DNA from: Candidatus Woesearchaeota archaeon
GTDB lineage: Archaea; Nanobdellota; Nanobdellia; Woesearchaeales; GW2011-AR9
Direction of reading: 5' to 3'
DNA: 48,353 nucleotides
NCBI GenBank assembly: GCA_018303445.1
Contig: JAGVYE010000006.1
Span: forward strand, 1 to 48,353
Positions 22,801 to 47,476 of this stretch are shown here, in pieces; positions within the stretch are counted from its first letter, which is position 1; each line of letters starts with the position of its first letter. The notes under the pieces are model-generated. The model ran no database searches and was not told the DNA's origin. It saw only the letters and a program-made list of their open reading frames with translations. A program made the translations under genes and the position numbers.

Positions 22801-23588
22801 AAAGGCAAGGAGATTTCTTTGGTGCTTTTAGTAGTTGGTCTAAATGAAATTGATTTGATATGGTCATAAACACTGGAAATACTTTCAATCTTAAACAAAT
22901 CAACTAACTTTAATAACTGCGCTAGGGAATATCTACCCTGCCAAATTCCATGGTAAAACGATTTTTCTTTAACTGATAGTAAGTTAGCAATAGATTTTAG
23001 ACCGTGCCGCAGAATTCTATCTTTTAAATTCTCAGCATATTCCTGCTTTAATTTTACATGACAATGTTGTTTAGCCAGTCTCTGTAAAGTTTCCTCTTTA
23101 AGATTTAAAGTTTCATCAATATCTATTTTTCTAGCGCAAACGATGCGATCACCTAATTTTAACTCTTGAGCTTCTTTTTCGGCAAACTGCATATCTTCCA
23201 AAGTAATGTAACGATGCTCTGGAGTGGTCGTAATTTGAGCGCCGGTTCTCAATTTTACATTAATAGCACCTCCACCAGATAATTTCCAAGCATGACTAAT
23301 GACTTTTTTTTCCAGTTTACCTGTTTCTTTATTCAGAGAAAAGACACCAATATTGGTATGAGAAAGATCATAAACAGTTTCTTGAGCATCATCTCTTACC
23401 AAGGTGCCCAGAGTAGTAGCTTGTTGATATAGTTGTTCAGCAGTAATAACAGTTCCATCAGTTAGAAACAGCCTAGTATTAGGAGCTACACATTTTCCAT
23501 GATGTATATGGGCACTCGTACAAATATTTCGAATCTTGGAAGGTGTCTGCGTAATCCGCATCACCTTCTCAACCATTCTCTCTCCCAT
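19845..23588 (-). CDS. fusA: Elongation factor 2 with intein in the P-loop
   Basis: EF-2, the GTPase driving ribosomal translocation. After removal of a 516-residue intein the protein is about 731 residues, normal for archaeal EF-2. The intein sits between Lys and Thr of the G1 loop, which reads Ala-His-Ile-His-His-Gly-Lys/Thr-Ala where most EF-2 have Ala-His-Ile-Asp-His-Gly-Lys-Thr-Thr. G3 is Asp-Thr-Pro-Gly-His and G4 is Asn-Lys-Val-Asp. The C-terminal part has the diphthamide loop Asp-Ala-Ile-His-Arg-Gly-Pro-Ala-Gln. I chose ATG 23588, with GGTGA upstream, over the GTG at 23597. It lies in a cluster after NDK and ribosomal genes. It cannot bind GTP until the intein is spliced out. Confidence 0.97.
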   Translation of the reverse strand: MGERMVEKVMRITQTPSKIRNICTSAHIHHGKCVAPNTRLFLTDGTVITAEQLYQQATTLGTLVRDDAQETVYDLSHTNIGVFSLNKETGKLEKKVISHAWKLSGGGAINVKLRTGAQITTTPEHRYITLEDMQFAEKEAQELKLGDRIVCARKIDIDETLNLKEETLQRLAKQHCHVKLKQEYAENLKDRILRHGLKSIANLLSVKEKSFYHGIWQGRYSLAQLLKLVDLFKIESISSVYDHIKSISFRPTTKSTKEISLPLNFNELFYLAGLFFGDGSGKKFVVGKQELKDKCMNICRNLGINPIYVENQDRTPEVLTNESLTYLFKALFDYPARQKSHNIHLNDFIFRAPQNTVSQFIKAYFDCDGTVEESRRAVSVTSVSPQMLKDLQLLLLRFSCTSIISHDTLYLSGISAKQYLDNISFEVEHKIQKTQKLVARIQGNLVTDTIPLSSAQMISLRKVPMASIDHHYYKYEKQILTPTLGTALRLKQQMADLHMETTIMDRLTSGDLAFVEIIRIEQREEPIVYDFSIPDNKNFIAEGMVIHNTAFTDNLLAAAGMMSSKAAGDLEEGMATWQHKDEQERLMTVDAANVSMVHAYKGEEYLINLIDTPGHVDFGGNVTRAMRAIDGTVVLICGVEGVMPQTETVVRQALRERVKPVLFINKVDRLVKELKLNPEQISQRILALVTQFNTMVENISEAQYREKWKVNVQDGSVAFGSARENWALSFPYMQKKGIKFSDILMIYEMEEEQRKEWVWANAPLHEVVLDMVIKHLPDPVTAQIYRIPKMWHGDPESQLGKDLLTCNPQGKIAFVITRIVIDPKSGKDISAGRLFSGTIRMGTEVYLNNAKLKQRVQNVYIYNGVKPELIESLPAGNVLAISGVTGFAGETVTVEQEEPFEELKHIFEPVITKAIEPKKPGDLPKLIEVLRKVGREDPSIKVEINEETGQNLISGMGELHLEIIENRIITEKGVEVKTSPPIVVYRETITKPSLEVEGKTPNKHNKLYFKVEPLDPKIAEGLKSGKMPTGRYRRKDDLVITFLREECDWDAKRAGMVKAAYGGNLFLDATRGIVQINEIMEMVLEMFQDVMKAGPLAKEPCINVMVSLTDCTLHEDAIHRGPAQMYPAIREGIRGAMMQAGPVMYEPLQVMRIEIPHDYVGEISKLVSSKRGQLLEMNQEGNLTIVVAKLPVGELLGWSNDLRSATEGRGNSSLMDQMFEKLPYELQEKVRQLIIQRKGLTAGELSI
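21945..23492 (-). other. Intein with LAGLIDADG endonuclease, in EF-2
   Basis: Codons 36-551, counted from the GTG at 23597, form a self-splicing protein intron. It starts with Cys-Val-Ala-Pro-Asn-Thr (block A), has Thr-Thr-Pro-Glu-His-Arg-Tyr (block B), two dodecapeptide endonuclease motifs (Leu-Ala-Gly-Leu-Phe-Phe-Gly-Asp-Gly near 274-282 and Ile-Lys-Ala-Tyr-Phe-Asp-Cys-Asp-Gly near 364-372), block F with Val-Tyr-Asp-Phe-Ser-Ile-Pro, and ends Val-Ile-His-Asn before Thr of the host. All catalytic positions look intact, so both splicing and homing activity are plausible. Confidence 0.95.
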
Positions 23589-23628
23589 GATTGTCACCTA
23601 TTCCTATTAATTGAATTTCTAAACAAAA

Positions 23629-31713: not shown

Positions 31714-31984
31714 GCAGCTAAACGGGACCAAGCACACTTAGAAAAAAGATAATTCAATAACATTTAGTTTCCGAATCGTTGTTTCTCAAAAATTTTTTGT
31801 CTCTGTTTAGTACTCAACACTAGCGAAAATTATCCTGCTGCCGTAGTTTTTTCTAAAAATTTGTTCTATAAATTCCGAGTGAAACAGAGCCAAGTTCAAC
31901 AAACATAGATCCATTCTCCCATGGACAGTTGAAAGGCGGTGTAAACCGGTGCATTAATTATGGCGGTGATTATTTTTCACGATT
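31714..31984. other. Intergenic stretch, no gene seen
   Basis: About 270 AT-rich bases between the HAD gene and the acidic-protein gene. There is a TATA-like TCTATAAATT near 31865 but no convincing frame or tRNA. A short stretch of higher GC (31930-31965) with GGCGGTG motifs may be part of a transcript, but I cannot assign it. Confidence 0.4.
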
Positions 31985-32281
31985 TTATTCTGTGGGGGTT
32001 TCTTCGGCTGCTGGTTCTGAAGGTACTTCTTCAACTGCTTCCACGGGTGTTTCTACAATAGCTTGTTCATCAGCAGGAACTTCTGGAACTGATTCTTCTG
32101 CTAAAAGTTCTTCTACCGATATCTCGTTTTCTGCTACCGGAACGGAAAAAACCTTAACCAACAATACTAAAACCAAAACCAGGATTACTATTTCCAAAAC
32201 ATTACATTTAACTCTTCCAGAAAAATAGAAAAAGTGGGGCAATTGCTGAGGTTCGCTCCAGACCAATCCGAGACTAAACAT
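31985..32281 (-). CDS. Membrane-anchored acidic Glu/Pro/Val-rich protein
   Basis: Up to 98 residues: a hydrophobic Ile/Leu/Val helix (about 28-45) followed by a strongly acidic tail of Glu-Glu, Val-Pro and Ala-Glu units, which suggests a flexible exported region. The start is unclear; an inner TTG just before the helix would give about 70 residues. The opposite frame is Ser/Thr-rich low complexity, and I judge it a shadow. Similar acidic anchors occur in archaeal surface proteins, but no family is recognised. Confidence 0.4.
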   Translation of the reverse strand: MFSLGLVWSEPQQLPHFFYFSGRVKCNVLEIVILVLVLVLLVKVFSVPVAENEISVEELLAEESVPEVPADEQAIVETPVEAVEEVPSEPAAEETPTE

Positions 32282-32321
32282 ATTTCCTTGTTCTTTTCTT
32301 CCCTCACCTTAAAGCATTGGT

Positions 32322-32760
32322 CTAACTGGCTTTTAAGTTCATGAAGCACATCTTCGGTAATAACATTAAAGTTAAATCAATCATATCAAAGGTAAATTCT
32401 TCTGTTTCTAAGTTATAAGGAGGAACATGGATAAATCTGATTCTTTCTCTTAGAGCATCGATTCTATCTCATAAAAACAGCAGATTCTTTAGGAATTTTA
32501 TGTTCGCTGCAAATTCTTGCCAGATCCTTTCCTCGTTGATATTTGCCTTCAACTGGAATCATATCAGCGTAGGTATAAATACTTTCAATATTTTCTGCTA
32601 TTTTTAAGTCGTTTAAGTGTTGATGTACCCTTACTTCATCTGGATCGTCAGTTGCAACATCTAAAGGCGAACTGACGCTAAAGCCGAAAGAAGACTTAAT
32701 ACATACCTCTAAATGGCGGCTATTCTGACCGCAGTAAGCGGGGGATAAAAGAAAGGGCAT
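32322..32760 (-). pseudogene. Broken HAD-family phosphatase remnant
   Basis: Two frames on the - strand read as one protein. The first (32760 to 32464) has Ile-Tyr-Thr-Tyr-Ala-Asp-Met-Ile-Pro-Val-Glu-Gly-Lys and ends in Ser-Ala-Val-Phe then a stop. The second frame resumes within a few bases as Asp-Arg-Ile-Asp-Ala-Leu-Arg-Glu-Arg-Ile-Arg-Phe and runs to TAG 32322. Joined, they give the motif-IV strand of a HAD phosphatase (Val-Phe-[Ile-Asp]-Asp-Arg). The N-terminal Asp-x-Asp nucleophile region is missing. So there is one frameshift plus N-terminal loss, and the gene appears dead. A sequencing error could mimic the frameshift but not the lost N-terminus. Confidence 0.6.
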
Positions 32761-32812
32761 TAAATTCTCAATTACAACAATCCATATAAATAATCATTTC
32801 AGATTCAAAAGG

Positions 32813-35113: not shown

Positions 35114-38100
35114 CTACAACTGCCTTTTCTTTTGATACCAGGTTAATCCTACTATGGTTATCACCACAACTGCGGCAAAGAGAACGATGACCCAGCCCAC
35201 TTTACCAACAACTTTGCCGACGCTCGTTGCTAAGCCCGCTAACGCTGACGGCCCTGCCCGTCCTGCCGGCTGCTGCGCAGCTGCTTCCGCTCCTCCTGCG
35301 GCCACTGGCGCTTGCTGTTGCGCTTCTTGTTGCTGTTCTGCTGCTTGCCCTCCTGTTCCACCTCTGCTTGGCTGCTGTGCCGGCTGTTGCGCTGGCTGTG
35401 CTTTCACCCCTATATTGGGCAGTGTACCTCCTCCTCCACTGCTGCCACGACCAGCAGTACCGCTGGTGGTGCTGCTGCTGCTTCCTGTTGAAGTTGTACT
35501 TTTATAAGTAGAAAATCCTAACCCCACCGCATCAGGAACTAAACATTCCGTCTCTGTCGCGCTGAAGGTACATGTAACTTTACTTGTCACATCTTGGCAA
35601 TTACTTCCGCTATCATCACAGTGCTGTAATACCGTGTCAGCCACTCCATCAGAAGTAGGGATGGAAACTATAGCTTTATCTAACCCTGTCTTTTGCTTAA
35701 AGGCTTGGTACTGATTTGCGTCCATGCCCAACAATTCCGTTCCCGTAAAGAATGATGAGATGTTCAAAGTTTGTTTTTCAAAGATATCAATGCCCACGAG
35801 AGTGATGGAACGAGCGCTTTGAGTATCATTAATAGTAATATTAACATTGGTTAAAAGCTGTGTTGATGCTTTCAATGCATAAGTGGGAGTATAATTGCTT
35901 AAATTCAATGAAGGAATATCTAAAGTCCAGTTATCCGGAATATCAAACTTAAACGTGATATTCACATATTTAAACGAAGTAGTGGCATTATTACAGGCTG
36001 TTACCGCGCAATTTCCACTTGGATCACAGACATTTAATTTATAGAAATACGTAACATTAGAATTTAACCCCGTTACATCTGCAACGTGATGGGGCCTAAA
36101 GTTAGTATGGCTATCTCCATCATTTAATGCCGAGTCATTGATCGTGGCATTCAATGTTGAACAGCGTGAATCATTATAATAATATTTTACCGTTCCATTA
36201 GCCGGCTCGTTGGTGTCAAAGATAAAAGATAATTGCGTAGGCAGGCGGTTATTAATTTTATTCCAGACAATGCTTGGCGCGCTTTCATCGCCTTCTACAG
36301 CCGTAAAGCTGCCGCCGCAGAAGAACGGATCATAGGCGCAATCCAAATCATTACAATCAGTCTTATCATCGCCGTCATTATCGATGTTGTCTTTACATGC
36401 CGGCCCAAACTCGCCAGGGAAGAAGCCAAACTGTTTAAATTTGCTGCATTGTGCTTTATCTTTAGAAGCCGTGCTCGTGCAATCGAAAATCTCCACATTG
36501 ATCCCTTTAAAATCCGCTGAACCAGGCCCAACGGAATCAGTTATATTTGAAGCATTTCCCCCTAAGCCCGCGCTTGTTGCATAAGCTCTCCATTTGGCGC
36601 TGACATTAACATCGCTCTTGCCTGTAAAGGCTTCTTTATCAATCGCCAGAATAGGACCGCCCACAAAGCCGCAGCCGTGTTGTTTATTAGATTTTACAGG
36701 GACATTACTCGAGACCCAATTTCCACTCGAACAATGTTCAGCAAGTAATGTTTCTTTCAGCCTGCTTGTTGCTGTATCCAGCTCTGCTATGTACTTAAAG
36801 TTATACTCAAAGCCGATTTTTGTGGCATCATCTCGAGCTGCGCATCCTCCTGTAGAAACATCATTAGTATCAAGATAAAGATAATACTTAGAAGTATTTG
36901 TCCCATTTCCAATAGTTGCTCCCGTCAGCCCCATCGCTACCCCCTTACAGATCATGGAATCAGACAGGTTTCGCACCATAATTCCATACGAATACGCATC
37001 ATCCATTTTTTTCATGCCTAATCCAGTAATATCTAAGAACCCGGAAGCTATATCTCCTGAACCGTCTGAAGAAATCGCCACAGGCGGCTCTTTATCAATT
37101 CCGGCAAAGAAAGTATTAGTAGATTTATCTTCGCACATTCCTGACCGAGTGCGTACGCGCCAGCCTAAATCTAGAAATAAATTATCTGTAAGCTCAGGAT
37201 CATAATTAGATCTATTACCATCAATAATGACCGTTCTCGTCGTGGTTGTATCGCTGACATTATAATTAAGATTATCGGTCGCGTCCAAATATAAATTACT
37301 TACGGGAATTTCCCACAACGCTTCAATGGCGGAAATCCTTTCTCCGGCAATGGTCGTGCTGTTAAAAAAATAATGAAGCACCGTTCCATTACACGTCGCT
37401 TCAGCATAGGCATTACAAGTTCCAATCATACAGGAACTATTAGTATAATTATATTCCATCATGATTGTCCTTTCACTAAATCCACCGCAAACTATGCGGG
37501 AAATGTTTGCCGTAAGATTTCTCGGGCTGAGGTTTCCTGACATTTCCAAACGGAGATAACTTCCATCCGTGGCATTTAAAAAATAAAATGAAGCATTATA
37601 TCCTCCTGGATTCCCAAAATCATCTCCGGCTTGATTTCCTGGCCGCGTTAAGCCAATAGCCATCCACTGGGCATTAACGTTAATAGTATCGTTTCGCAAA
37701 GGACTCGGATGGCGTAACGCGCCAAAATTATTAATTCCACTAACCCATTGGCAGGAAGGATTTCCCGTACAGGAATTTATATCGCCATCAAATTGGAAAC
37801 AATCTGCTACATTGGAAACAGGCTTGCAATATCCGCTGGTCCATAAGCATGTTCCCGCGCCAAAAGCCGTGCCATTGGCCGTACAATCCGCTTGCGTTGT
37901 AATTAAACCATTCGTGCACGGATCAACACAACTTTCTGATTGAAATCCTTCAAATCCGCCGCTAAACTCATTTCCCCGCCATAAGCAGCCTGCCGTTTCA
38001 CATACTGCTTGATCCGTCTGCACTGAAGCATTATTAGTGCAGCGCACAAAAACCGTCATCGCGCAAAACCCGCCATTGGCAGAATCCCAAGTGCATCCAG

Positions 38101-41100
38101 CCGTCGCATTGCACGTGCCAGAATCAATCAATAAACTGCACGTGTTCAGCATCGTCGAGTTAAGTTCACAGGAATCTTCTGCTTTCCAACTGCACACGCT
38201 TCCACTTAAGAATGATGTGCAGGCGGTTTGATTATGTTCCATAGACTGATTTTCCCAGCATTGGAATGAAGAAGGCTTACAGCTTGCGAAACCAAAATCA
38301 TCACTAAACCAACTGCATCCGGAAACGGCCGTGCAACTTGTCTGTGCCGCCGCCGGAGAACCGTAACTAAAAATATCATATTGGAAGCAATTATTTGGGT
38401 CGGTAGAATCACCGCCGCAGAAAGGGTCAAAGGTGCATTTAAAATCATTACAATCTGTTTGCCCATTATTATCATTGTCAAGGGCATCAAAACAAACTTC
38501 AAATTCACCCGATCTTGGCGTGCAGAAATTTGCCGTTAAATCCCATTGGCAGCCGCCGTTAGCAGGAGAACCGGTGCAAGTTGTTTGAGAATTACATTGA
38601 AAGCAGTCTTGATTGCAGCCTCTCACGCCATTATCAATGCAAAAGTTAGTGACATTATCCCACTTGCAAACCGCGCTTGAGTTTTGGCATGCGGGCTGGG
38701 GATTAGGCATGATGTTACAATCCCCGCAATGTTCATCGCAATCAAACCCTCCGCTTTCTTGGGCAGGAACGCACCACCCTAAGCCATTAAACGCATTCGT
38801 GTTAACTTGAAAAAGACAGCCGGCGGCAGAATTTTGGCATTGCACCTGGGCATCAGAAAGTGTTGTCCAGGGAGTTCCATCACTTTGATATTCACAGGCA
38901 AAACAATCCCTGCTGCAATCCCGAAGCTGGCTAAGGTCGCCGCCAAAATTTTGGGAGCCAGGCCCAATTTCGGCAAACGTTTTTATGTCTACGTTAAACT
39001 CGCACCATTTTTCCGCGGTAACTTTATTGGCAACGGGATCAAAAGTATTCTCTTGCTTCCATAGTCCTCCCATTACGTCGCAAGTATCCTCGCTGGTAAT
39101 ATCATCAAAATTATCCTGCCTGGTAAAATCTAAAAAGCGCGTCTCGCACTGGCTGGTTTTATTATTCCAGCCGCATGGTAAAAAATATAAATTCGCCAAA
39201 TCCCCGCAGCCAGACTGATTATTTACGTAACCGCGAGCTTCACAGGAAGAAACTGGCGGCGAAGGTAGATTAGCTAATGTTTTTGACCTGTTGAAAACAC
39301 ATGCTAGTACATCTTCATCCCAGCTGCATAATCCTGTTCCTTGCGTAAAGCCTTGGTTTTCACAAAATGTGCTATTCTCCACGATAGCTGTACAGTTATA
39401 ACCAACAAAAGAATTATAAAAATTAATTGTGTCTTCTACACATAACCCTTGTGTTCCCGCTGTGGCATCCCAGCTACAGTAAAAAAGAAGAGGATTAGTG
39501 AATCCATCAGCGCCGCAGGCTGATGGAGGAAGGCCCCGACAGGAAGCTTTGTCATGATCTTCAAAAAAATCTTCCGCTAGACAAATTCCATTCAACCATT
39601 GACATTCGCGAACAGGATTAGTAAAACAAGCATCAATGGTTGTATTCAGTATACAGCCGCTGAGTTTATCATTTGTTGTAAGCGTCGCATTATTTGTTTC
39701 ACTATGGAACTTATATTCAAACGTGATACTTGAACCTACTGTTAAATTCTTGACATACAGCGCCACGGAAGTGTTGTCCGGAAGTAAAAAAGCCACCGCA
39801 TCTCCAGGATTGACAAAAGCCTTTGTTTGGCAGCCATAACAACTATTGATAAAATTATCTCTATAAGAAGAATTTGGCACACGAAGGAAATTACTGCGGA
39901 ACTCATCGCCTTGCAATTCTGATGAAAAAAATCCCATAAACAATAACTGCGCCCCATTGATTGCCTCGACATAAGATTCATATGAAGTAATATTATCAAA
40001 TCGTATATAACCCGCTGCCCCGGCAAAGCTTTGATTGCTGAAGTTAAACGTCGCAGAAGAATTGTCAGTAATATCCTGCATTGTCACATTGCCGCTAAAA
40101 AAAATCTGAGGTAAATTATTTGTAAACAATTTAATCTGCCAATCCAGGGAACCGGCAGCACTCGCGCCCACGACTGTGACATTGTTTGACCCGCTTTGGA
40201 TGGCGATACCCCTTGCCGCTTCATCAAAAGAATACGATTTATTCCATGCCGTCGTGTTTTCTGTTCCTGAAGAATTAAACATTTTTAGAAGCCAATTAAA
40301 ATTAAATGTAGTGGGATTAAAATAGGATCCAACAACATACACATTATCTTGAAAATCAACCCCTACATCATAGGCATAATCACCAGCTAAAAGATCTTCA
40401 CTCAGATTGAAGACCTTATCCCACCCTGCGACAATTTCCGTTCCCGAACGATTATATTTCTTAATCACCCAGTATCTATCAACAGCAGAGTTATTACTGG
40501 TAGAATAGCCTGCAACATAAACATTATCCTGAGAATCAACAGCAACGCTATATGCTTCATCATTTATAGAAGAGACGGAACGAAAAGTTTTGTTCCACTC
40601 TGTTACTTCCTCTGAATCATTCAGGTAAAACTTCTTCATCCACCAATCATAAGTACCGACAAACTCTGCCCGTTCTAATGATCCCACAACATATAAGCTA
40701 TCTTGGGAATCGACCGCGGCAGCATAGGCGAAATCACGGCCTCCCATTCCACCATCATATCCTGCATTAAAAGATTTATTCCACTGTGTTGTATTCTCTG
40801 TTCCGCTGCGATTAAAACGCTTAATCCACCAATCCCGGTTGGTGGCTAAATTACTTACTAAATTATCCCCATACCCAACAACATAAATATTATCTTGAGA
40901 ATCAACAGCAATACCTCGGGCAGGTAATACATTTACATTCCCCGCATTGCTATCCCAGAACGTTTTATTCCACTCTGTTATTTCTTCCGAAGCGTTAGGA
41001 TAATACTTTTTAATATGCCAAGCGCTGAGACTCATCGAATCCGTTAGATATCCTGCCACATAGACATTATCTTGCGAATCAACGGCCACACCATATGGTT

Positions 41101-41458
41101 TTTCAATGCTCCCATAATTAATACTTTTATTCCAACTAAGATTTTCTACTCCTAAAGCATCATACCGTTTCAACATCCATGAACTAGAAATATCTGCAAC
41201 TTCTCCTACAACATACAAATGCTTTTGCGAATCAAAGACCGCATCATAGGCAATATCTATACCCATTTCATCTGCGCGAAGATCATACGTTTTATTCCAG
41301 CGCAGTTCATCTTCCGCCGGAGGAGCAGCAACGAAAATGAGAAAAAGTAATAGCATTACAAAGAGCATTACAGTAAAGCCATACTTACCGTGAAATTTAA
41401 ACTTCAATGACAATACCCCCTTTTTCCCATATGAATTCCTGCCTAAATTCATGTACAT
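35114..41458 (-). CDS. Giant Cys-rich surface protein with beta-propeller (2114 aa)
   Basis: A secreted, membrane-anchored giant. Order: signal peptide; seven repeats of 50-60 residues from about 53 to 450, each with Trp-Asn-Lys, Val-Asp-Ser-Gln-Asp-Asn-Val-Tyr-Val-Ala-Gly and a Trp-x-x-Lys-x-Tyr/Phe strand, forming a probable seven-bladed propeller; a beta-sandwich-like region; many Cys/Trp modules; two acidic Asp-Asn-Asp-Asn-Asn-Gly calcium-type loops; a fibronectin-III-like domain; a long Gln/Ala/Gly/Pro linker; a final membrane helix and basic tail. Asn-x-Ser/Thr sites are abundant. The frame opens at ATG 41458, but TTG 41407, after GGGGGT, would put the signal peptide right at the start. 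It leads an operon with doxX and VKOR. Confidence 0.88.
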   Translation of the reverse strand: MYMNLGRNSYGKKGVLSLKFKFHGKYGFTVMLFVMLLLFLIFVAAPPAEDELRWNKTYDLRADEMGIDIAYDAVFDSQKHLYVVGEVADISSSWMLKRYDALGVENLSWNKSINYGSIEKPYGVAVDSQDNVYVAGYLTDSMSLSAWHIKKYYPNASEEITEWNKTFWDSNAGNVNVLPARGIAVDSQDNIYVVGYGDNLVSNLATNRDWWIKRFNRSGTENTTQWNKSFNAGYDGGMGGRDFAYAAAVDSQDSLYVVGSLERAEFVGTYDWWMKKFYLNDSEEVTEWNKTFRSVSSINDEAYSVAVDSQDNVYVAGYSTSNNSAVDRYWVIKKYNRSGTEIVAGWDKVFNLSEDLLAGDYAYDVGVDFQDNVYVVGSYFNPTTFNFNWLLKMFNSSGTENTTAWNKSYSFDEAARGIAIQSGSNNVTVVGASAAGSLDWQIKLFTNNLPQIFFSGNVTMQDITDNSSATFNFSNQSFAGAAGYIRFDNITSYESYVEAINGAQLLFMGFFSSELQGDEFRSNFLRVPNSSYRDNFINSCYGCQTKAFVNPGDAVAFLLPDNTSVALYVKNLTVGSSITFEYKFHSETNNATLTTNDKLSGCILNTTIDACFTNPVRECQWLNGICLAEDFFEDHDKASCRGLPPSACGADGFTNPLLFYCSWDATAGTQGLCVEDTINFYNSFVGYNCTAIVENSTFCENQGFTQGTGLCSWDEDVLACVFNRSKTLANLPSPPVSSCEARGYVNNQSGCGDLANLYFLPCGWNNKTSQCETRFLDFTRQDNFDDITSEDTCDVMGGLWKQENTFDPVANKVTAEKWCEFNVDIKTFAEIGPGSQNFGGDLSQLRDCSRDCFACEYQSDGTPWTTLSDAQVQCQNSAAGCLFQVNTNAFNGLGWCVPAQESGGFDCDEHCGDCNIMPNPQPACQNSSAVCKWDNVTNFCIDNGVRGCNQDCFQCNSQTTCTGSPANGGCQWDLTANFCTPRSGEFEVCFDALDNDNNGQTDCNDFKCTFDPFCGGDSTDPNNCFQYDIFSYGSPAAAQTSCTAVSGCSWFSDDFGFASCKPSSFQCWENQSMEHNQTACTSFLSGSVCSWKAEDSCELNSTMLNTCSLLIDSGTCNATAGCTWDSANGGFCAMTVFVRCTNNASVQTDQAVCETAGCLWRGNEFSGGFEGFQSESCVDPCTNGLITTQADCTANGTAFGAGTCLWTSGYCKPVSNVADCFQFDGDINSCTGNPSCQWVSGINNFGALRHPSPLRNDTINVNAQWMAIGLTRPGNQAGDDFGNPGGYNASFYFLNATDGSYLRLEMSGNLSPRNLTANISRIVCGGFSERTIMMEYNYTNSSCMIGTCNAYAEATCNGTVLHYFFNSTTIAGERISAIEALWEIPVSNLYLDATDNLNYNVSDTTTTRTVIIDGNRSNYDPELTDNLFLDLGWRVRTRSGMCEDKSTNTFFAGIDKEPPVAISSDGSGDIASGFLDITGLGMKKMDDAYSYGIMVRNLSDSMICKGVAMGLTGATIGNGTNTSKYYLYLDTNDVSTGGCAARDDATKIGFEYNFKYIAELDTATSRLKETLLAEHCSSGNWVSSNVPVKSNKQHGCGFVGGPILAIDKEAFTGKSDVNVSAKWRAYATSAGLGGNASNITDSVGPGSADFKGINVEIFDCTSTASKDKAQCSKFKQFGFFPGEFGPACKDNIDNDGDDKTDCNDLDCAYDPFFCGGSFTAVEGDESAPSIVWNKINNRLPTQLSFIFDTNEPANGTVKYYYNDSRCSTLNATINDSALNDGDSHTNFRPHHVADVTGLNSNVTYFYKLNVCDPSGNCAVTACNNATTSFKYVNITFKFDIPDNWTLDIPSLNLSNYTPTYALKASTQLLTNVNITINDTQSARSITLVGIDIFEKQTLNISSFFTGTELLGMDANQYQAFKQKTGLDKAIVSIPTSDGVADTVLQHCDDSGSNCQDVTSKVTCTFSATETECLVPDAVGLGFSTYKSTTSTGSSSSTTSGTAGRGSSGGGGTLPNIGVKAQPAQQPAQQPSRGGTGGQAAEQQQEAQQQAPVAAGGAEAAAQQPAGRAGPSALAGLATSVGKVVGKVGWVIVLFAAVVVITIVGLTWYQKKRQL
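35140..35345 (-). repeat. Near-identical 3' ends of the two giant genes
   Basis: DNA here matches 42470-42672 almost base for base, covering the Gln/Ala linker and membrane helix. Another strongly matching block is 36299-36450 with 43618-43769. The remaining parts of the genes are much more diverged, which suggests recombination between the copies. Confidence 0.8.
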
Positions 41459-41531: not shown

Positions 41532-41801
41532 CTACATTTTATACGCTTCATCATGATGACCAAAAAAAATGAACGTAACTGTCTGAACCGTTTCACTAAC
41601 TTCAAACTTCAGAACAAAACTTTTGAGAATATGAACTCTTCTCTCGCCGGCTAAATCGTAAAGTAATGGTTTATAATGAAGTGGATTTTCCACAATTTCG
41701 CTCATCTTTTTCTTCAATGCTTGCTCAAGGGCATGATTTTTTTTGCATAAGGCACGAATCTCTTTTTGGCATTGAGGATGAATCTCAATATTATAAGTCA
41801 T
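41532..41801 (-). CDS. RelE/ParE-family toxin
   Basis: 89 residues matching the RelE/ParE fold: an N-terminal Tyr-Asn-Ile-Glu-Ile-His strand, a helix rich in Lys, the Leu-x-Gly-Glu-Arg-Arg-Val-His-Ile turn near 50-58, and a C-terminal Val-Thr-Phe-Ile-Phe-Phe-Gly-His-His-Asp-Glu strand. RelE relatives cleave mRNA on the ribosome; ParE relatives poison gyrase. The His-His-Asp end favours an archaeal RelE, though this is inference. It is the last gene of a three-gene operon with two ribbon-helix-helix proteins and sits between the two giant surface genes. Confidence 0.82.
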   Translation of the reverse strand: MTYNIEIHPQCQKEIRALCKKNHALEQALKKKMSEIVENPLHYKPLLYDLAGERRVHILKSFVLKFEVSETVQTVTFIFFGHHDEAYKM

Positions 41802-41834
41802 TTAATATCCACCAGTTATGGTTAAAAAAACATC

Positions 41835-42125
41835 TCAGTATTTAAAGATTTCAGCTATTGACTTTACCTTCAAGAGTTTTTCTTTCTTTCGCTTTTCCAG
41901 CTCTTTCCGAAACTCCTCTCTTAAAGGCAACTCATCGACAGGATGCCAATCTATGTTGTCACAGAATTTCCACCCCTCACCAGTTAATGAACCGGTTTTA
42001 ATATAATTCTCAAATATTAATTTCTTAGTCGCTTCTTCTCGAGCGATCTCACTCCAATTAACCCATAAATAATGCTTCAACTGATTCTTAAAATCTTCCG
42101 ACACTGATAAAGTTAGAGAAGCCAT
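41835..42125 (-). CDS. Antitoxin with ribbon-helix-helix N-terminus
   Basis: 96 residues. The N-terminus (Ser-Leu-Thr-Leu-Ser-Val-Ser-Glu-Asp-Phe, then helices to about 40) fits a ribbon-helix-helix DNA-binding fold. The charged helical C-terminus, with Asp-Glu-Leu-Pro-Leu and a Lys/Glu-rich helix, is the likely toxin-wrapping tail. I start at ATG 42125; the frame runs 24 bp further into the preceding gene. The toxin gene starts 33 bp after its stop. It probably binds and neutralises the RelE-like toxin. Confidence 0.75.
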   Translation of the reverse strand: MASLTLSVSEDFKNQLKHYLWVNWSEIAREEATKKLIFENYIKTGSLTGEGWKFCDNIDWHPVDELPLREEFRKELEKRKKEKLLKVKSIAEIFKY

Positions 42126-42135
42126 CCTACCCCCT

Positions 42136-42291
42136 TTATATCTTTCCACATTGTTTTAATTCTTCAAACTTTTGTAATTCTTTAATCCTTAGTTTGAATC
42201 TTTGTTTAAGATACTCAGCCCAGTTTATTTCAGAATGCTCATCGATCTTTTTCTTCAAGTCCTTAGGTATAGAGATTGTAAACGTTGCCAT
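42136..42291 (-). CDS. Small ribbon-helix-helix protein (51 aa)
   Basis: A 51-residue protein (Met-Ala-Thr-Phe-Thr-Ile-Ser-Ile-Pro-Lys-Asp-Leu-Lys, then two helices with Asn-Trp-Ala-Glu) with the same ribbon-helix-helix pattern as the next gene, where Asn-Trp-Ser-Glu is at the same place. It is probably a paralogue that lost the toxin-binding tail, acting as a repressor of the operon. It ends 10 bp before the antitoxin ATG. Two palindromes directly upstream are likely operators. Confidence 0.7.
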   Translation of the reverse strand: MATFTISIPKDLKKKIDEHSEINWAEYLKQRFKLRIKELQKFEELKQCGKI

Positions 42292-42299
42292 TTTTATCA

Positions 42300-42329
42300 A
42301 CTAAATTTAGTATGAACACTAAAATTAGT
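42300..42329 (-). promoter_or_regulatory. Twin palindromic operators of the toxin-antitoxin operon
   Basis: ACTAAATTTAGT (42300-42311, a perfect palindrome) and ACTAAAATTAGT (42318-42329, one mismatched pair) lie 6 bp apart. They sit between a TATA-like GTTTAAATATATC (- strand, 42331-42343) and the first ATG at 42291, covering the probable start site. This fits cooperative binding of RHH dimers and autorepression. Confidence 0.7.
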
Positions 42330-42420
42330 GGATATATTTAAACTTTTCTCATGAGAAACCTTTCCATTCCTACAAGCGAAAAAATTACGAACCAAAAAGG
42401 TTAAAGAAAATAAAAAAACA

Positions 42421-42445: not shown

Positions 42446-45400
42446 CTATTCCTGTCTCTTCTTAAACCACGTTAAAGCTGCAATGGTTATCACCACAACT
42501 GCGGCAAAGAGAACGATGACCCAGCCTACTTTACCGACTGCCTTCCCAACGCTCATGGCTAAGCCCGCTAACGCTGACGGTCCTGCCCGTCCTGCCGGCT
42601 GCTGCGCAGCTGCTTCCGCTCCTCCTGCGGCCACTGGCGCTTGCTGTTGCGCTTCTTGTTGCTGTGCTGCTGCTTGCCCGCCAGTTCCCCCTGTGCTTGG
42701 AGGCTGTTGTGCTGGCTGTGGTGCTACTGCCGTATTTGGAAGCGATCCGCCGCCGCCGCCACCACCACCAGATGAACTGCTGGTGGTGCTGGAAGATGTT
42801 GTAGTAGCTGTCGTAGTTTTGTATGATGAGAATCCTAACCCCACCGCATCTGGAACTTCACATTCCGTATCTGTCGCGCTGAATGTACATGTTACTTCAC
42901 CTGTGACATCCTGACAGTCAGTTCCATCATCTTCACAATGCTGCAATATCGTGTCAACCACGGCGTCAGAAGTGGGAATGGTAACAATCGTTTTATCCAA
43001 CCCTGTCTTCTGCTTGAAAGCTTGATACTGGTTGGCATCAATTCCGAGGAAGTCGCTTCCTGTCGAAAACGAGGAAATGTTCAACGTCTGCTTTTCAAAG
43101 ATATCAACGTCAACAAACTTAATCGAGCGGCCGCTGGTTGTATCATTAACGGTGATGTTAATTCCCGTTAAGCGATCCGAAGATGCTTTAATTGCGTATG
43201 TCGGTGTGAAGTTTGTCAAGTTCAGTGAAGGAATGTCCACTGTCCAATTGTCAGGAAGATCTAACTTAAAGGTAACATTCACCGGTTTTGCAGACGTTGT
43301 CGCGTTGCTGCATTCGCTCATTGCACAATTTCCACTTGGATCACAGACATTGTACTTGTAAAAATATGTGCTGTTTGCGTTTAACCCAGTTACTTTCGCA
43401 ACGTGATGGGGCCTGAAATTTGTGTGCGTATCGCCATCACTTAAAGCCGTATCGTTAATCGTCGCATTCAACGTTGCGCAAGTAGTGTCATTGTAATAAT
43501 ACTTCACTGTTCCATTGGAAGGCTCATCCGTGCCAAAAGTAAATGCAAGTTGTGTGGGAACTTTTTCATTAATCTTATTCCAAACAACAGTTGGAACATC
43601 ATCGTCATCAGCTCTCGCCGTAAAGCTACCGCCGCAGAAGAACGGATCATAGGCGCAATCCAAGTCATTGCAGTCAGTCTCATCATCGCCGTCATTATCC
43701 ATGTTGTCTTTACATGCCGGCCCAAACTCGCCAGGGAAGCAGCCAAACTGTTTAAACTTGCTGCATTTTGAATTGTCTTTTTGTGCCGTACTGGAGCAAT
43801 CGAAAATCTTCATGTTGATCCCATCAAAGTCAGCCGTTCCAGGAACTGTTCCATCAGTAACGTTAGTCGAGTTCCCCCCTAATCCTGTTGCTGTTGCATA
43901 GGCTCTCCACTTAGCGCTCGTGTTCACATTGCTTTTGGTATGAAGAGTTCCTTTATCAATAGCAAGAATAGGCCCGCCTACAAAGCCGCAGCCGTGCTGC
44001 TTATTAGACTTTACAGGAACATTGCTGGAAACCCAGCTCCCAGAGGAACAAATCTGTGCTGTCAAGACTTCAGATACTACTCCTCGTTGAAGTTCTACGA
44101 CGTACTTAAACAGGTGCTCAAATCCAGTATAACCGAAACCATCAGACGCTGAGCATCCTCCTGTTGAAACACCATTGGTATCGAGGTAAAGGTAATACTT
44201 CGACGTATTCGTTCCATTGCCAATGACACTTCCCGTCGTTCCTACTTTTATACCATTGCAAACCGCCGAGTCACTCATATTCCGCACCGGAATGCCATAC
44301 GCGTATGCTTCTTCTGTCTTTTTCACGCCTAAACCAACAATGTCTATGAACCCGGAAGCGACATCACCCGAGGGGTCACTGGCTATAATTTTCGGTGGTT
44401 CTTGATCCATCCCTTGGAACATCTTGTTTTCAAAGATCGGGTTACACATTCCTGTTTGTGTGCGCACCCGTGTAGCATTGGTTATGGAATCATTCGCGGA
44501 AGAACTTTCCGGAACATGATTTGTTAAGAACCCGTCAACTACAACCGTCGAGAAATTAGCCGTATCAGTAACATTAGAATTATTACTTAGCGTATCAAGG
44601 TACAACAGCCCGACATCTCTTTCCCAGAGAACTTCTATCGTCTCCATTGTACTGTTGAAGAAGTAATTAACAGTTGACCCATTGCAAGTATACCTGTCAA
44701 AGGCATTACAAGTGCCAGACTGACAAGTGCTATTAGAATAATTATACTGCACAAAGATCGTTCTTGTGTCTTGACTGCCGCAAATAATCTGAGAGATATT
44801 CACTGAAACACTCGCATCAGGCGAGGAAAGGTTCGCCGCCATTTCAATTCGCACGTAACCGCCATCCGTTCCATTCAACCCATATGCTGATTCATTCTGC
44901 GACGTATCACTATTCCTTGGCCTTTGCAATCCAATGGCCATCCAGCTCTGGAAGGAACGAATCGTTCCATTCTGCAGCGCATTAGGATTTTTCAAGTCTC
45001 CCGGCAGTGGAATCCAGACACAGTTCGTGTTTGCTTTACACGCGGTTATATCTCCATCATAATCAAAGCATACACTAATACTATCTTTAGCTTGACAGAA
45101 CCCCGTGCTCCAGATACACGTCCCAGCACTGATCACGCTGCCATTCGCCGCGCAATTTGCTGCATCAAGAATACCCGGATTCTGACATGGCTCTACACAA
45201 TTAGAACTGCCACGGAAACCTTCAAAGCTCCCTCCTTGGAATTCATTTCCTCTCCAATAACAATTTTGCGATTCACACAAAGTCTGACTACTCTGTATAC
45301 TCATATTATCAGAACACCTGCCAATAGCAGCTACTTCGCAAATGCTTCTTGGTGTGCTCCACTGGCAGCCACCTACAGCATTACACGTCCCCGCAGTTTG

Positions 45401-47476
45401 CCTGAAACAAGTAGTTTCCAGCGTACTATTAATCGAACATTCTCCTTCAACGACAAAAGAACAGACTGTCACCCCAGTATCTCCCTGGTAAGCTTCGCAT
45501 GCGGTTTGATTATGCTCCATTGATATGTTCTCCCAACATTGGGCAGAAATAGGCTTGCATGAAGAAAAACCATAAGTGTCATTTAACCATACACAGCCTC
45601 CTTTCGCCGTGCAATTTCCTCGTGCTGCCACATCCGAAAAGTCAGGCGAAGAATATTTGCCTCTTTCAAACTGGAAGCATCCGTTAGGATCAACGCTATT
45701 TCCTCCGCAGAATGGATCAAATGAACATTTAAAATCATCACAATCAGTTTGTCCATTATTATCATTATCTGTTCCATCAAAACAAATTTCATACTGACCT
45801 CCGCGTGGTTTACAGAAGGAAATAGTAGTATCCCATTGACACCCGCCCATCGCCGGCGAACCCTGACAGCCGGTTTGGTCAGGACACGCAAAGCAATCTT
45901 GGCCGCAGCTTTGCCGTCCTTCAGGGATACAAGATTGAGTCATATTATCAAACTTACACTCTGCAGAAGAATTTTGACATGCTGATTGCTTCGTTTGTAT
46001 TGGCAGTAAGTTGCAATTCCCACACTGATCATCACAGTCTAGGTCCCCGTCTTCAAAGGCAGAAGTGCACCAGCCAAAACCGTTAAAAGCATTTCCATTT
46101 TCTCTAAATGTGCATCCTGCCGCAGAATTTGCGCATACCGCACTCGCATTAGCACTGGTTGGCCATCTGCTGCCGTTAGTTTGAAACTCACAGGCAAAAC
46201 ACTCACTGCTACAAGATTGTAATTGCCCCGTATTTCCCCAAAAATCCTGCCCGCCAGCGCCAACTTCACTGAACTTCTTTATTGCTATACCCATCTCGCA
46301 CCAGTTTTCTGAAGTTGTCAATTTTTTTATAGGATCGTATGTCGTTTCTGATTTCCATGTTCCTCCTGTTGATTGACAAGAACCCTCACTATTAATGTCA
46401 TCAAAATCATCAAATTTGTTAAAGTTAAAAAAAGCAAAATGGCAATTATTAGTCTGATTATTCCAATTACAAGGGAGGAAATACAAATTTTGTAAATCAC
46501 CGCAACCAGATTGGTTATTAATATATCCTGGAGCTTCACAGAACCAAGCCGGAGGGTCAGGAACATTATCTGCGGTCTTAGATCTATTCAAGCTGCAGAC
46601 GCCATTTGCAAATGTACATAATCCTGTATTCTGGGTAAAAGTTGAATTGTCACATACAGACGAATTAATTATCGCCGTACAATTATATCCGTAATCCCCA
46701 TGAAATAAGGCTCCATTTTCACATACATTAGTAGTATTACTCCAATGACAGAATGAACTGTTAAAGCCTTGACAAGCGCTTCTCGGCAACATATCGCAAC
46801 TAAGAAAATCAAATTCATCAGGATGCGTATCTTGTAAACACATCCCATTCTGCCAATAACATTCAAAACTGGGATTCATAAAACAACTATCGATCGTTAT
46901 ATTCTCAGGACAGCCACTAAAAGGCCGTTCAAAGGTTTCATTATTAGCTTGATTATTATACTTGTATTCAAAAGTTATACTCGTGCCTACCGTTAAATTT
47001 TTTACAAAGAGAACTGCGGAGAAATTCCCCGGCATCACTAAACTCACGAGATCCCCAAGCAGTATTGTAGTTTCACGCGAGCATTCATCACCACAGAAAC
47101 CATGACCGGGAATAACAGAATCTTGATAAGAAGCATTTGGAATACGCACTATAGAGCTTCGAAACTCAGCGCCTTGAAAATCGTCAGAAAAGAAACCATG
47201 AGGAAGAAGCCGGTCATAATTGATTCCATTGATAAAATGTGATGTCAAAACAGCATGAGAAGAGGTGTAGTTGCGAAAACTTAAATAGCCATGAGGGCCT
47301 GCAGATTGATTAGTAAAGTTGAATTTGGCAGAAGCATTAACCTCGCCATTCCTATCCTGATAAACAGTTAATGTTACATTACCATAAATAGTAGCCGCCG
47401 AAACATAAAACGCTGAAAGCAACGTTAGCAGAAATAATACCAAAACTAACCCTTTAAATTTTCTATTTACAACCAT
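42446..47476 (-). CDS. Giant Cys-rich surface protein, paralogue (1676 aa)
   Basis: A paralogue of the 2114-residue protein without the N-terminal propeller. A clear signal peptide (about 8-28, ending Ser-Ala) is followed by the same beta-rich domain (Gly-Phe-Phe-Ser-Asp-Asp-Phe-Gln-Gly-Ala-Glu-Phe-Arg-Ser), the same series of Cys/Trp modules, both acidic Asp-Asn-Asp-Asn-Asn-Gly loops, the fibronectin-III-like domain, the Gln/Ala/Gly linker and the same C-terminal membrane helix. It has many Asn-x-Ser/Thr sites. Stretches of the C-terminal third are almost identical to the other gene in DNA. GGGTGAGG precedes the ATG, and a GATATAAATA box at 47541-47550 gives a leader of about 40 nt. Confidence 0.88.
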   Translation of the reverse strand: MVVNRKFKGLVLVLFLLTLLSAFYVSAATIYGNVTLTVYQDRNGEVNASAKFNFTNQSAGPHGYLSFRNYTSSHAVLTSHFINGINYDRLLPHGFFSDDFQGAEFRSSIVRIPNASYQDSVIPGHGFCGDECSRETTILLGDLVSLVMPGNFSAVLFVKNLTVGTSITFEYKYNNQANNETFERPFSGCPENITIDSCFMNPSFECYWQNGMCLQDTHPDEFDFLSCDMLPRSACQGFNSSFCHWSNTTNVCENGALFHGDYGYNCTAIINSSVCDNSTFTQNTGLCTFANGVCSLNRSKTADNVPDPPAWFCEAPGYINNQSGCGDLQNLYFLPCNWNNQTNNCHFAFFNFNKFDDFDDINSEGSCQSTGGTWKSETTYDPIKKLTTSENWCEMGIAIKKFSEVGAGGQDFWGNTGQLQSCSSECFACEFQTNGSRWPTSANASAVCANSAAGCTFRENGNAFNGFGWCTSAFEDGDLDCDDQCGNCNLLPIQTKQSACQNSSAECKFDNMTQSCIPEGRQSCGQDCFACPDQTGCQGSPAMGGCQWDTTISFCKPRGGQYEICFDGTDNDNNGQTDCDDFKCSFDPFCGGNSVDPNGCFQFERGKYSSPDFSDVAARGNCTAKGGCVWLNDTYGFSSCKPISAQCWENISMEHNQTACEAYQGDTGVTVCSFVVEGECSINSTLETTCFRQTAGTCNAVGGCQWSTPRSICEVAAIGRCSDNMSIQSSQTLCESQNCYWRGNEFQGGSFEGFRGSSNCVEPCQNPGILDAANCAANGSVISAGTCIWSTGFCQAKDSISVCFDYDGDITACKANTNCVWIPLPGDLKNPNALQNGTIRSFQSWMAIGLQRPRNSDTSQNESAYGLNGTDGGYVRIEMAANLSSPDASVSVNISQIICGSQDTRTIFVQYNYSNSTCQSGTCNAFDRYTCNGSTVNYFFNSTMETIEVLWERDVGLLYLDTLSNNSNVTDTANFSTVVVDGFLTNHVPESSSANDSITNATRVRTQTGMCNPIFENKMFQGMDQEPPKIIASDPSGDVASGFIDIVGLGVKKTEEAYAYGIPVRNMSDSAVCNGIKVGTTGSVIGNGTNTSKYYLYLDTNGVSTGGCSASDGFGYTGFEHLFKYVVELQRGVVSEVLTAQICSSGSWVSSNVPVKSNKQHGCGFVGGPILAIDKGTLHTKSNVNTSAKWRAYATATGLGGNSTNVTDGTVPGTADFDGINMKIFDCSSTAQKDNSKCSKFKQFGCFPGEFGPACKDNMDNDGDDETDCNDLDCAYDPFFCGGSFTARADDDDVPTVVWNKINEKVPTQLAFTFGTDEPSNGTVKYYYNDTTCATLNATINDTALSDGDTHTNFRPHHVAKVTGLNANSTYFYKYNVCDPSGNCAMSECSNATTSAKPVNVTFKLDLPDNWTVDIPSLNLTNFTPTYAIKASSDRLTGINITVNDTTSGRSIKFVDVDIFEKQTLNISSFSTGSDFLGIDANQYQAFKQKTGLDKTIVTIPTSDAVVDTILQHCEDDGTDCQDVTGEVTCTFSATDTECEVPDAVGLGFSSYKTTTATTTSSSTTSSSSGGGGGGGGSLPNTAVAPQPAQQPPSTGGTGGQAAAQQQEAQQQAPVAAGGAEAAAQQPAGRAGPSALAGLAMSVGKAVGKVGWVIVLFAAVVVITIAALTWFKKRQE
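42470..42672 (-). repeat. Partner copy of the shared giant-gene 3' end
   Basis: This is the second copy of the block at 35140-35345. Both are in the same orientation about 7.3 kb apart, so recombination between them could delete the toxin-antitoxin operon and fuse the two giant genes. Confidence 0.75.

What the first reader, a model, noticed from the sequence alone, without database searches (positions are those of the whole stretch)
41532..42343. Three-gene RHH-RHH-RelE operon with twin operators between giant genes
A short RHH protein precedes a full antitoxin and a RelE-like toxin, with two 12-bp palindromes over the promoter. The extra RHH gene may divide repression from neutralisation. 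Its place between directly repeated giant genes means that any recombination deleting the region would expose the cell to toxin, stabilising the pair.
Basis: partly seen in the sequence, partly recalled or inferred. Interest (0 to 1): 0.6.

Follow-up and report, generated by a model that had tools for sequence, protein, structure and literature searches.

The report
Two-repressor toxin–antitoxin operon in archaea
A small toxin operon in a tiny-genome archaeon carries two related DNA-binding proteins where the textbook arrangement has one, and the same pair recurs in many related archaea, also in front of a quite different toxin, so it looks like a reusable control unit for toxins.

Summary
On the minus strand lie a 51-aa ribbon-helix-helix (RHH) gene, a 96-aa RHH antitoxin and an 89-aa RelE/YafQ-fold toxin, behind an archaeal-type TATA box and two 12-bp palindromes 18 bp apart.

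The three-gene layout is conserved. All 18 full-length antitoxin matches in 371 genomes of the phylum have the small RHH gene directly upstream, as do 12 of 13 toxin relatives (the 13th is cut by its contig end). The same RHH pair also precedes VapC-like PIN toxins (13 loci). First-position RHHs cluster with VapB antitoxins but lack their toxin-binding tail. Second-position RHHs form a separate lineage and carry W[VI]NWS in 43 of 43, against 0 of 43 first-position and 0 of 38 single VapBs.

Divergence of gene 1 and of the operator follows the antitoxin's RHH core more than its tail or the toxin. Best reading: gene 1 is a tail-less RHH co-repressor that works with the antitoxin's own RHH; the antitoxin's tail neutralises the toxin. 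Heterodimer or neighbouring homodimers is undecided.

New variant of tripartite type II toxin–antitoxin systems.

The parts
42332..42342 (-). TATA-box-like element TTTAAATATAT of the operon promoter
   Evidence: Read directly from the sequence; similar elements precede the operators in most relatives. Role inferred from general archaeal promoter knowledge (recalled).
42318..42329 (.). Operator palindrome 1, ACTAAAATTAGT (5 of 6 pairs), between TATA box and expected transcription start
   Evidence: twin score 22 against 14.5 shuffled mean; 0 of 4000 shuffles.
42300..42311 (.). Operator palindrome 2, ACTAAATTTAGT (perfect), 18 bp from the first, 8 bp upstream of the g1 start codon
   Evidence: the twin pattern is found at one place in the genome.
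42136..42291 (-). Gene 1: minimal RHH protein, 51 aa, VapB-like without the toxin-binding tail
   Evidence: clade of first-position RHHs in the tree; pN/pS median 0.22.
42129..42134 (-). Shine-Dalgarno-like GGGGGT in front of gene 2
   Evidence: Read directly; not tested.
41991..42125 (-). Gene 2, N-terminal RHH core (first 45 aa) with the second-position signature WVNWS
   Evidence: second-position lineage in the tree.
41835..41990 (-). Gene 2, C-terminal tail (motif FC..IDWHPVDELP), proposed toxin-neutralising segment
   Evidence: Conserved in alignment A1; occurs without an RHH strand in front of RelE in L100, L121, L122; tracks the toxin.
41532..41801 (-). Gene 3: RelE/YafQ-fold toxin, 89 aa

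Best explanation
The locus is a three-gene type II toxin-antitoxin operon of DPANN-type archaea. Gene 3 is a RelE/YafQ-fold toxin, most likely a ribosome-dependent mRNA endonuclease (inferred from the fold). Gene 2 is the antitoxin: its C-terminal tail neutralises the toxin and its N-terminal RHH binds the operator. Gene 1 is a tail-less RHH protein of VapB descent that acts together with the RHH of gene 2 on the twin palindromes between the TATA box and the start codon, shutting the operon down. Its job is repression (and possibly tuning of conditional cooperativity), not neutralisation. Shown by sequence: gene order, conservation, the two RHH lineages, tail against no tail, the operators, and coupling of gene 1 divergence to the gene 2 RHH core and the operator. 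Inferred: DNA binding, repression, the toxin's activity, and whether gene 1 and gene 2 form heterodimers or adjacent homodimers.
For: Full-length g2 matches have g1 directly upstream in 18 of 18; toxin-ascertained relatives in 12 of 13, the other being cut by its contig end; distinct RelE-type g2 with the tail motif in 27 of 27. g1 is 51 aa at the median in both toxin classes, single VapBs 74 aa. g1 of 16 of 16 relatives matches the VapB model; the window's g1 covers positions 2-46 of its 69. All g1 of both toxin classes fall in one clade (99/87), apart from all g2 (99/96); separate duplication within each toxin class is rejected (p-AU 0.0073). W[VI]NWS in 43 of 43 g2, 0 of 43 g1, 0 of 38 VapB, and in 2 of 2 further pairs. 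g1 distance follows the g2 core (r 0.73; partial 0.65 given the tail, 0.61 given the toxin) but hardly the toxin or tail once the core is accounted for (0.11, 0.05), while the tail follows the toxin (0.72; partial 0.58). Operator distance follows g1 (r 0.58, p 0.009) and the g2 core (0.52, p 0.018), less the tail (0.30, p 0.11) and toxin (0.33, p 0.10). Antitoxins with the tail but no RHH strand stand in front of RelE in three loci.
Against: No experiment. The distance correlations use 25 of 28 RelE triples, 17 with a usable operator; they share ancestry, and neighbouring genes travel together, so linkage alone could give part of the pattern. r(g1,g2core) exceeds r(g1,toxin) in only 91% of bootstraps, and with six divergent rows removed g1 correlates almost as well with the tail (0.64) as with the core (0.70). 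The tree has 48 columns for 124 rows. The twin 18-bp operators are also enriched in single-RHH VapBC, so they need no second RHH. 8 of 30 RelE triples have their best repeat at another spacing, and only 9 of 30 reach p 0.05 alone. The joined g1-g2 model showed no strand pairing.
Confidence: 0.6

Rival explanations
1. Obligate RHH heterodimer: gene 1 and gene 2 pair strand to strand in one mixed dimer, so that each DNA-bound dimer carries only one toxin-binding tail. This fixes the toxin stoichiometry and replaces ordinary conditional cooperativity.
For: Contrasting residues at the same place in every pair (mostly E, D or Q in g1, W in g2); g1 co-diverges with the g2 core; gene starts and stops often abut or overlap, as for subunits made together.
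Against: The residue could sit at a dimer-dimer contact or at the DNA backbone instead. The joined model gave no paired strands, pTM 0.43. VapB relatives are known as homodimers (recalled).
Confidence: 0.3
2. Separate homodimers: gene 1 dimers are the constitutive repressor, gene 2 with or without toxin binds next to them, one per palindrome, much as PaaR and PaaA-ParE act independently.
For: Two near-identical palindromes; both RHHs keep S/T3-T5-S7. A known system has regulator and antitoxin-toxin complex repressing independently (PMC4803016, passages).
Against: Single-RHH VapBC operons have the same 18-bp twin arrangement without a second RHH.
Confidence: 0.35
3. Gene 1 is a decaying remnant of an older antitoxin (a truncated VapB) carried along in the operon.
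For: It is a VapB-like protein without the last third.
Against: Present in every intact full-length case, under purifying selection like g2 and toxin (0.22 against 0.24 and 0.24), and kept with two unrelated toxins.
Confidence: 0.05
4. The operon is a local safeguard that punishes recombination between the flanking giant genes.
For: It lies between direct repeats with 84 bp of exact identity.
Against: No link between operon and giants among the relatives searched: 4 genomes with operon and no giant match, 2 with a giant match and no operon.
Confidence: 0.03

Closest known systems
omega-epsilon-zeta of plasmid pSM19035 (PMC4803016, passages seen)
   Same: Three genes; a small RHH regulator separate from the toxin-binding antitoxin; arrays of short repeated operator boxes.
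   Different: There antitoxin and toxin play no part in transcription; here the antitoxin keeps its own RHH. The toxin there is zeta, here a RelE fold.
paaR-paaA-parE of E. coli O157:H7 (PMC4803016, passages seen)
   Same: Regulator + antitoxin + RelE/ParE-fold toxin in one operon; the toxin model here also matches the ParE2 structures 5cw7/5czf.
   Different: PaaA is not an RHH antitoxin (recalled). In the archaeal operon both upstream genes are RHH and related to each other, and the pair also serves a PIN toxin.
Two-gene RelBE / DinJ-YafQ
   Same: RHH antitoxin with C-terminal tail next to a RelE/YafQ-fold toxin; autoregulation from palindromes.
   Different: An additional tail-less RHH gene at the first position.
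Archaeal VapBC
   Same: Gene 1 falls with VapB antitoxins in the tree; 18-bp twin operators; the same RHH pair is found with PIN toxins.
   Different: Here the toxin is RelE-like, and gene 1 lacks the VapB tail.

Membership tests
RelE/ParE superfamily toxin | Sequence match to the curated family | tested here: met
   PF05016 ParE_toxin 29.2 bits against cut-off 23.
RelE/ParE superfamily toxin | RelE-type fold | tested here: met
   Model pLDDT 84.6; 4fxe_E RelE Z 12.7, 1.7 A, 80 residues; 4q2u_L YafQ Z 11.9.
YafQ subfamily (TIGR00053) | Score above the curated cut-off | tested here: not met
   61.8 bits against 87.25 for the window protein, E 7.1e-17; 15 of 15 relatives match at E up to 0.001, scores against the cut-off not shown for them.
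RelE/ParE superfamily toxin | Ribosome-dependent mRNA cleavage | not testable with these tools
   Needs a bench assay.
Canonical two-gene RelBE | Exactly one antitoxin gene next to the toxin gene | tested here: not met
   Two RHH genes precede the toxin in the window and in the intact full-length relatives.
Tripartite type II TA | Third gene co-located as regulator with antitoxin and toxin | tested here: met
   Gene order and conservation; the regulator role itself is inferred.
omega-epsilon-zeta | Antitoxin without a DNA-binding domain of its own | tested here: not met
   g2 carries an RHH core with conserved strand residues.
VapB antitoxin (NF050799) | Score above cut-off and C-terminal toxin-binding region | tested here: not met
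   g1 scores 31 bits against cut-off 60 and covers positions 2-46 of 69.
RHH (MetJ/Arc/CopG) DNA-binding proteins | Beta strand followed by two helices, strand paired in a dimer | tested here: inconclusive
   RHH_1 matched in 6 of 16 g1 relatives at E up to 0.1 (best 0.006). Model of the joined pair has the two helices of each RHH but no assigned strand.
VapBC | PIN-domain toxin | tested here: not met
   The window's toxin is RelE-fold. The PIN class occurs in 13 other double-RHH loci.

The most novel reading that the evidence does not exclude
The two RHH genes form a toxin-agnostic control cassette of DPANN-type archaea: an obligate pair (tail-less RHH1 + W-marked RHH2), old enough to predate the split between its RelE and PIN versions. 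It reads twin 18-bp operators as mixed dimers, while only the tail of RHH2 and the toxin are exchanged as a unit. The mixed reader would fix how many toxins can sit on the promoter and so replace conditional cooperativity by a built-in stoichiometric limit.
Probability: 0.3. Interest if true: 0.65.

Novelty: new variant of a known kind. Interest (0 to 1): 0.48.

Why it matters
In most type II toxin-antitoxin operons one protein both represses and neutralises, and the ratio of toxin to that protein sets expression. Here the DNA-reading part is duplicated and one copy has lost the neutralising tail. The arrangement recurs with two unrelated toxins across many archaeal genera, so natural pairs exist with which to ask what a second reader does to the switch. 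It also gives a simple sequence mark (W[VI]NWS in the second RHH) for annotating such loci, whose first gene, at about 51 codons, is easy to miss.

Tried and rejected
Giant-gene stabilisation: rejected as unsupported (see rivals). 'Twin operators because there are two RHH proteins': rejected, since single-RHH VapBC operons have them too. 'Gene 1 is debris': rejected. Separate duplication of the RHH in each toxin class: rejected by the AU test. Repeated toxin swapping judged from gene 1: the drawn tree suggests it, but one clade of all RelE-type g1 is not rejected (p 0.09), and without L120 it fits as well as the free tree, so no swap count is claimed.

Solved-structure searches by sequence for g1, g2 and the toxin gave nothing significant. 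The joined g1-g2 model and its Foldseek search (best E 1.5) say nothing about pairing. No relatives in viral contigs for toxin or g2 or in plasmids for g2; one distant RelE in a Geoglobus virus. PADLOC: one weak toxin match, E 7.6e-4. Rfam and tRNA scans of the window gave none. Print: eight library searches listed no paper that by title or opening abstract describes an archaeal RHH-RHH-toxin operon. Only passages of PMC2701414, PMC4803016 and PMC11980606 were read. The library holds open-licence papers only, so an earlier description elsewhere is possible.

Full report
What is there. The minus strand of 41532-42343 carries three closely packed genes. Gene 1 (42136-42291) encodes 51 aa, gene 2 (41835-42125) 96 aa and gene 3 (41532-41801) 89 aa. 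Upstream of gene 1 are a TATA-like TTTAAATATAT (42332-42342) and two 12-bp boxes, ACTAAAATTAGT (42318-42329) and ACTAAATTTAGT (42300-42311), 18 bp apart. The twin scores 22 against a shuffled mean of 14.5, is matched by 0 of 4000 shuffles and is found at only one place in the 1.22-Mb genome with up to 3 mismatches. By general archaeal promoter spacing (recalled), transcription would start between or close to the boxes, so a bound repressor would block polymerase.

The toxin. It matches PF05016 above its cut-off and the YafQ model TIGR00053 below its cut-off. The AlphaFold2 model (pLDDT 84.6) matches RelE, YafQ and ParE structures (Foldseek; Z 12.7 for RelE 4fxe and 11.9 for YafQ 4q2u). Invariant residues in alignment A3 (15 sequences, the window's included) include G52, E53, R55, H57, H82, H83, D84 and Y87. 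An mRNA-cleaving activity is inferred, not shown.

The layout is conserved. A toxin search of genome contigs gave 13 relatives, by title nearly all DPANN archaea, one labelled Euryarchaeota and one uncultured archaeon. 12 of 13 have gene 1 and gene 2 upstream; L103 is cut by its contig end. In L093 gene 1 seems to start with ATT instead of ATG. A search with gene 2 of 371 genomes of the phylum gave 18 full-length matches, the window's included, all 18 with gene 1 upstream. Over all loci held, 27 of 27 distinct gene 2 proteins with the tail motif have gene 1 directly upstream. Median pN/pS over pairs at 65% identity or more is 0.22 for gene 1, 0.24 for gene 2 and 0.24 for the toxin.

The pair also serves another toxin. 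Among 92 distinct RHH operons in loci L001-L160 there are 28 RHH-RHH-RelE, 2 RHH-RHH without a recognised toxin (counted with the RelE class below), 13 RHH-RHH-PIN and 38 RHH-PIN. The other 11 (6 RHH alone, 3 RHH-RelE, 1 RHH-RelE-RelE, 1 RHH-PIN-PIN) were left out of later counts. First-position RHHs have a median of 51 aa in both classes; single VapBs 74 (range 70-83); second-position proteins 98 (RelE class) and 82 (PIN class). In a tree of 124 RHH cores (48 columns) all 43 first-position RHHs form one clade (99/87) beside VapB, and all 43 second-position RHHs lie across a branch with 99/96 support. A tree in which the RelE-class pair arose on its own is rejected (p-AU 0.0073). The motif W[VI]NWS occurs in 43 of 43 second-position RHHs, 0 of 43 first-position and 0 of 38 single VapBs (the script accepted S or A at the last place, and the listing shows S in all). 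Because many pairs were found with a profile containing this W, I looked at pairs found through gene 1 instead: L142, L154, L156 and L161, L162 carry it too, 5 of 5.

What gene 1 goes with. In 25 of the 28 RelE triples (three dropped: toxin outside 80-95 aa or gene 1 under 44 aa), gene 1 distance correlates with the gene 2 RHH core (r 0.73), less with the toxin (0.51) and the gene 2 tail (0.43). Given the core, the partial correlations with toxin and tail are 0.11 and 0.05. The tail correlates with the toxin (0.72; partial 0.58). For the 17 with a recognisable TATA anchor, operator distance correlates with gene 1 (0.58, p 0.009) and the core (0.52, p 0.018), not significantly with tail (0.30, p 0.11) or toxin (0.33, p 0.10). 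Against this: r(g1,core) exceeds r(g1,toxin) in only 91% of bootstraps, the partial for toxin has a wide interval (-0.29 to 0.61), and without six divergent rows the g1-tail correlation (0.64) is close to g1-core (0.70). Linkage and common ancestry are not excluded.

Separable neutralising tail. Three loci (L100, L121, L122) have a two-gene form: the same tail and a RelE relative, but no RHH strand and no gene 1. This fits a tail that neutralises by itself, with DNA binding as an added function. It is sequence evidence only.

Operators. With spacings of 15-21 bp allowed, the best twin repeat falls at 18 bp in 22 of 30 RelE-class, 10 of 13 PIN-class and 17 of 38 single-VapBC upstream regions, against a shuffled rate of 0.12-0.14. 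The 18-bp twin therefore belongs to this VapB-type regulation in general and is not a product of the extra gene. Only 9 of 30 RelE-class regions reach p 0.05 one by one.

Setting. The two giant genes (2114 and 1676 aa) share 58% aa identity, 74% DNA identity over about 1.95 kb at the 3' end, and an 84-bp exact stretch. Of 60 genomes searched, only this one has two matches to the giant's C-terminal 299 residues; G007 and G016 have one weak match each and lack this operon at the thresholds. G030, G033, G051 and G062 have the operon and no giant match. The setting is therefore incidental on present evidence.

Mechanism. I favour joint operator reading by gene 1 and the gene 2 RHH, with neutralisation by the gene 2 tail. 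Whether the two RHHs pair in one dimer cannot be told: the joined-chain model showed the helices of both RHHs but no strand pairing (pLDDT 72, pTM 0.43), and its fold search found nothing.

Known relatives. Tripartite type II systems are known (pasABC, omega-epsilon-zeta, paaR-paaA-parE, spoIIS; passages of PMC4803016). None of those, as far as the passages read show, has two related RHH proteins of which one is the antitoxin. Eight library searches listed no description of this archaeal arrangement (see Tried and rejected). I rate it a new variant of a known kind.

Noticed in passing
window 35114-41458 and 42446-47476: Two giant, directly repeated genes (2114 and 1676 aa) with near-identical C-terminal ends and a shared exact 84-bp stretch; the longer one has an extra N-terminal beta-propeller-repeat region (SBBP). 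Almost absent from 60 genomes searched.
   Followed up: partly
window 19845-23597: Elongation factor 2-like gene interrupted by an intein with a LAGLIDADG-type domain.
   Followed up: no
window 31714-32812: About 1.1 kb without an ORF of 100 aa or more and without an Rfam match.
   Followed up: partly
L100 1524-4700: Three RelE-type cassettes in a row: a two-gene form whose antitoxin has the tail but no RHH strand, then two RHH-RHH-RelE operons. L101 has two operons in a row.
   Followed up: partly
L112: An RHH-RHH pair with no RelE of its own behind it; a different RelBE-like pair lies on the opposite strand just downstream.
   Followed up: partly
L114 1787-2251: RelE gene whose second half no longer resembles the family, possibly a frameshifted or fused copy.
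   Followed up: no
L093 about 2534: Gene 1 seems to begin with ATT where relatives have ATG.
   Followed up: no
BK065157.1 9275-9532: Distant RelE relative (31% identity) in Geoglobus ahangari pleomorphic virus 1.
   Followed up: no
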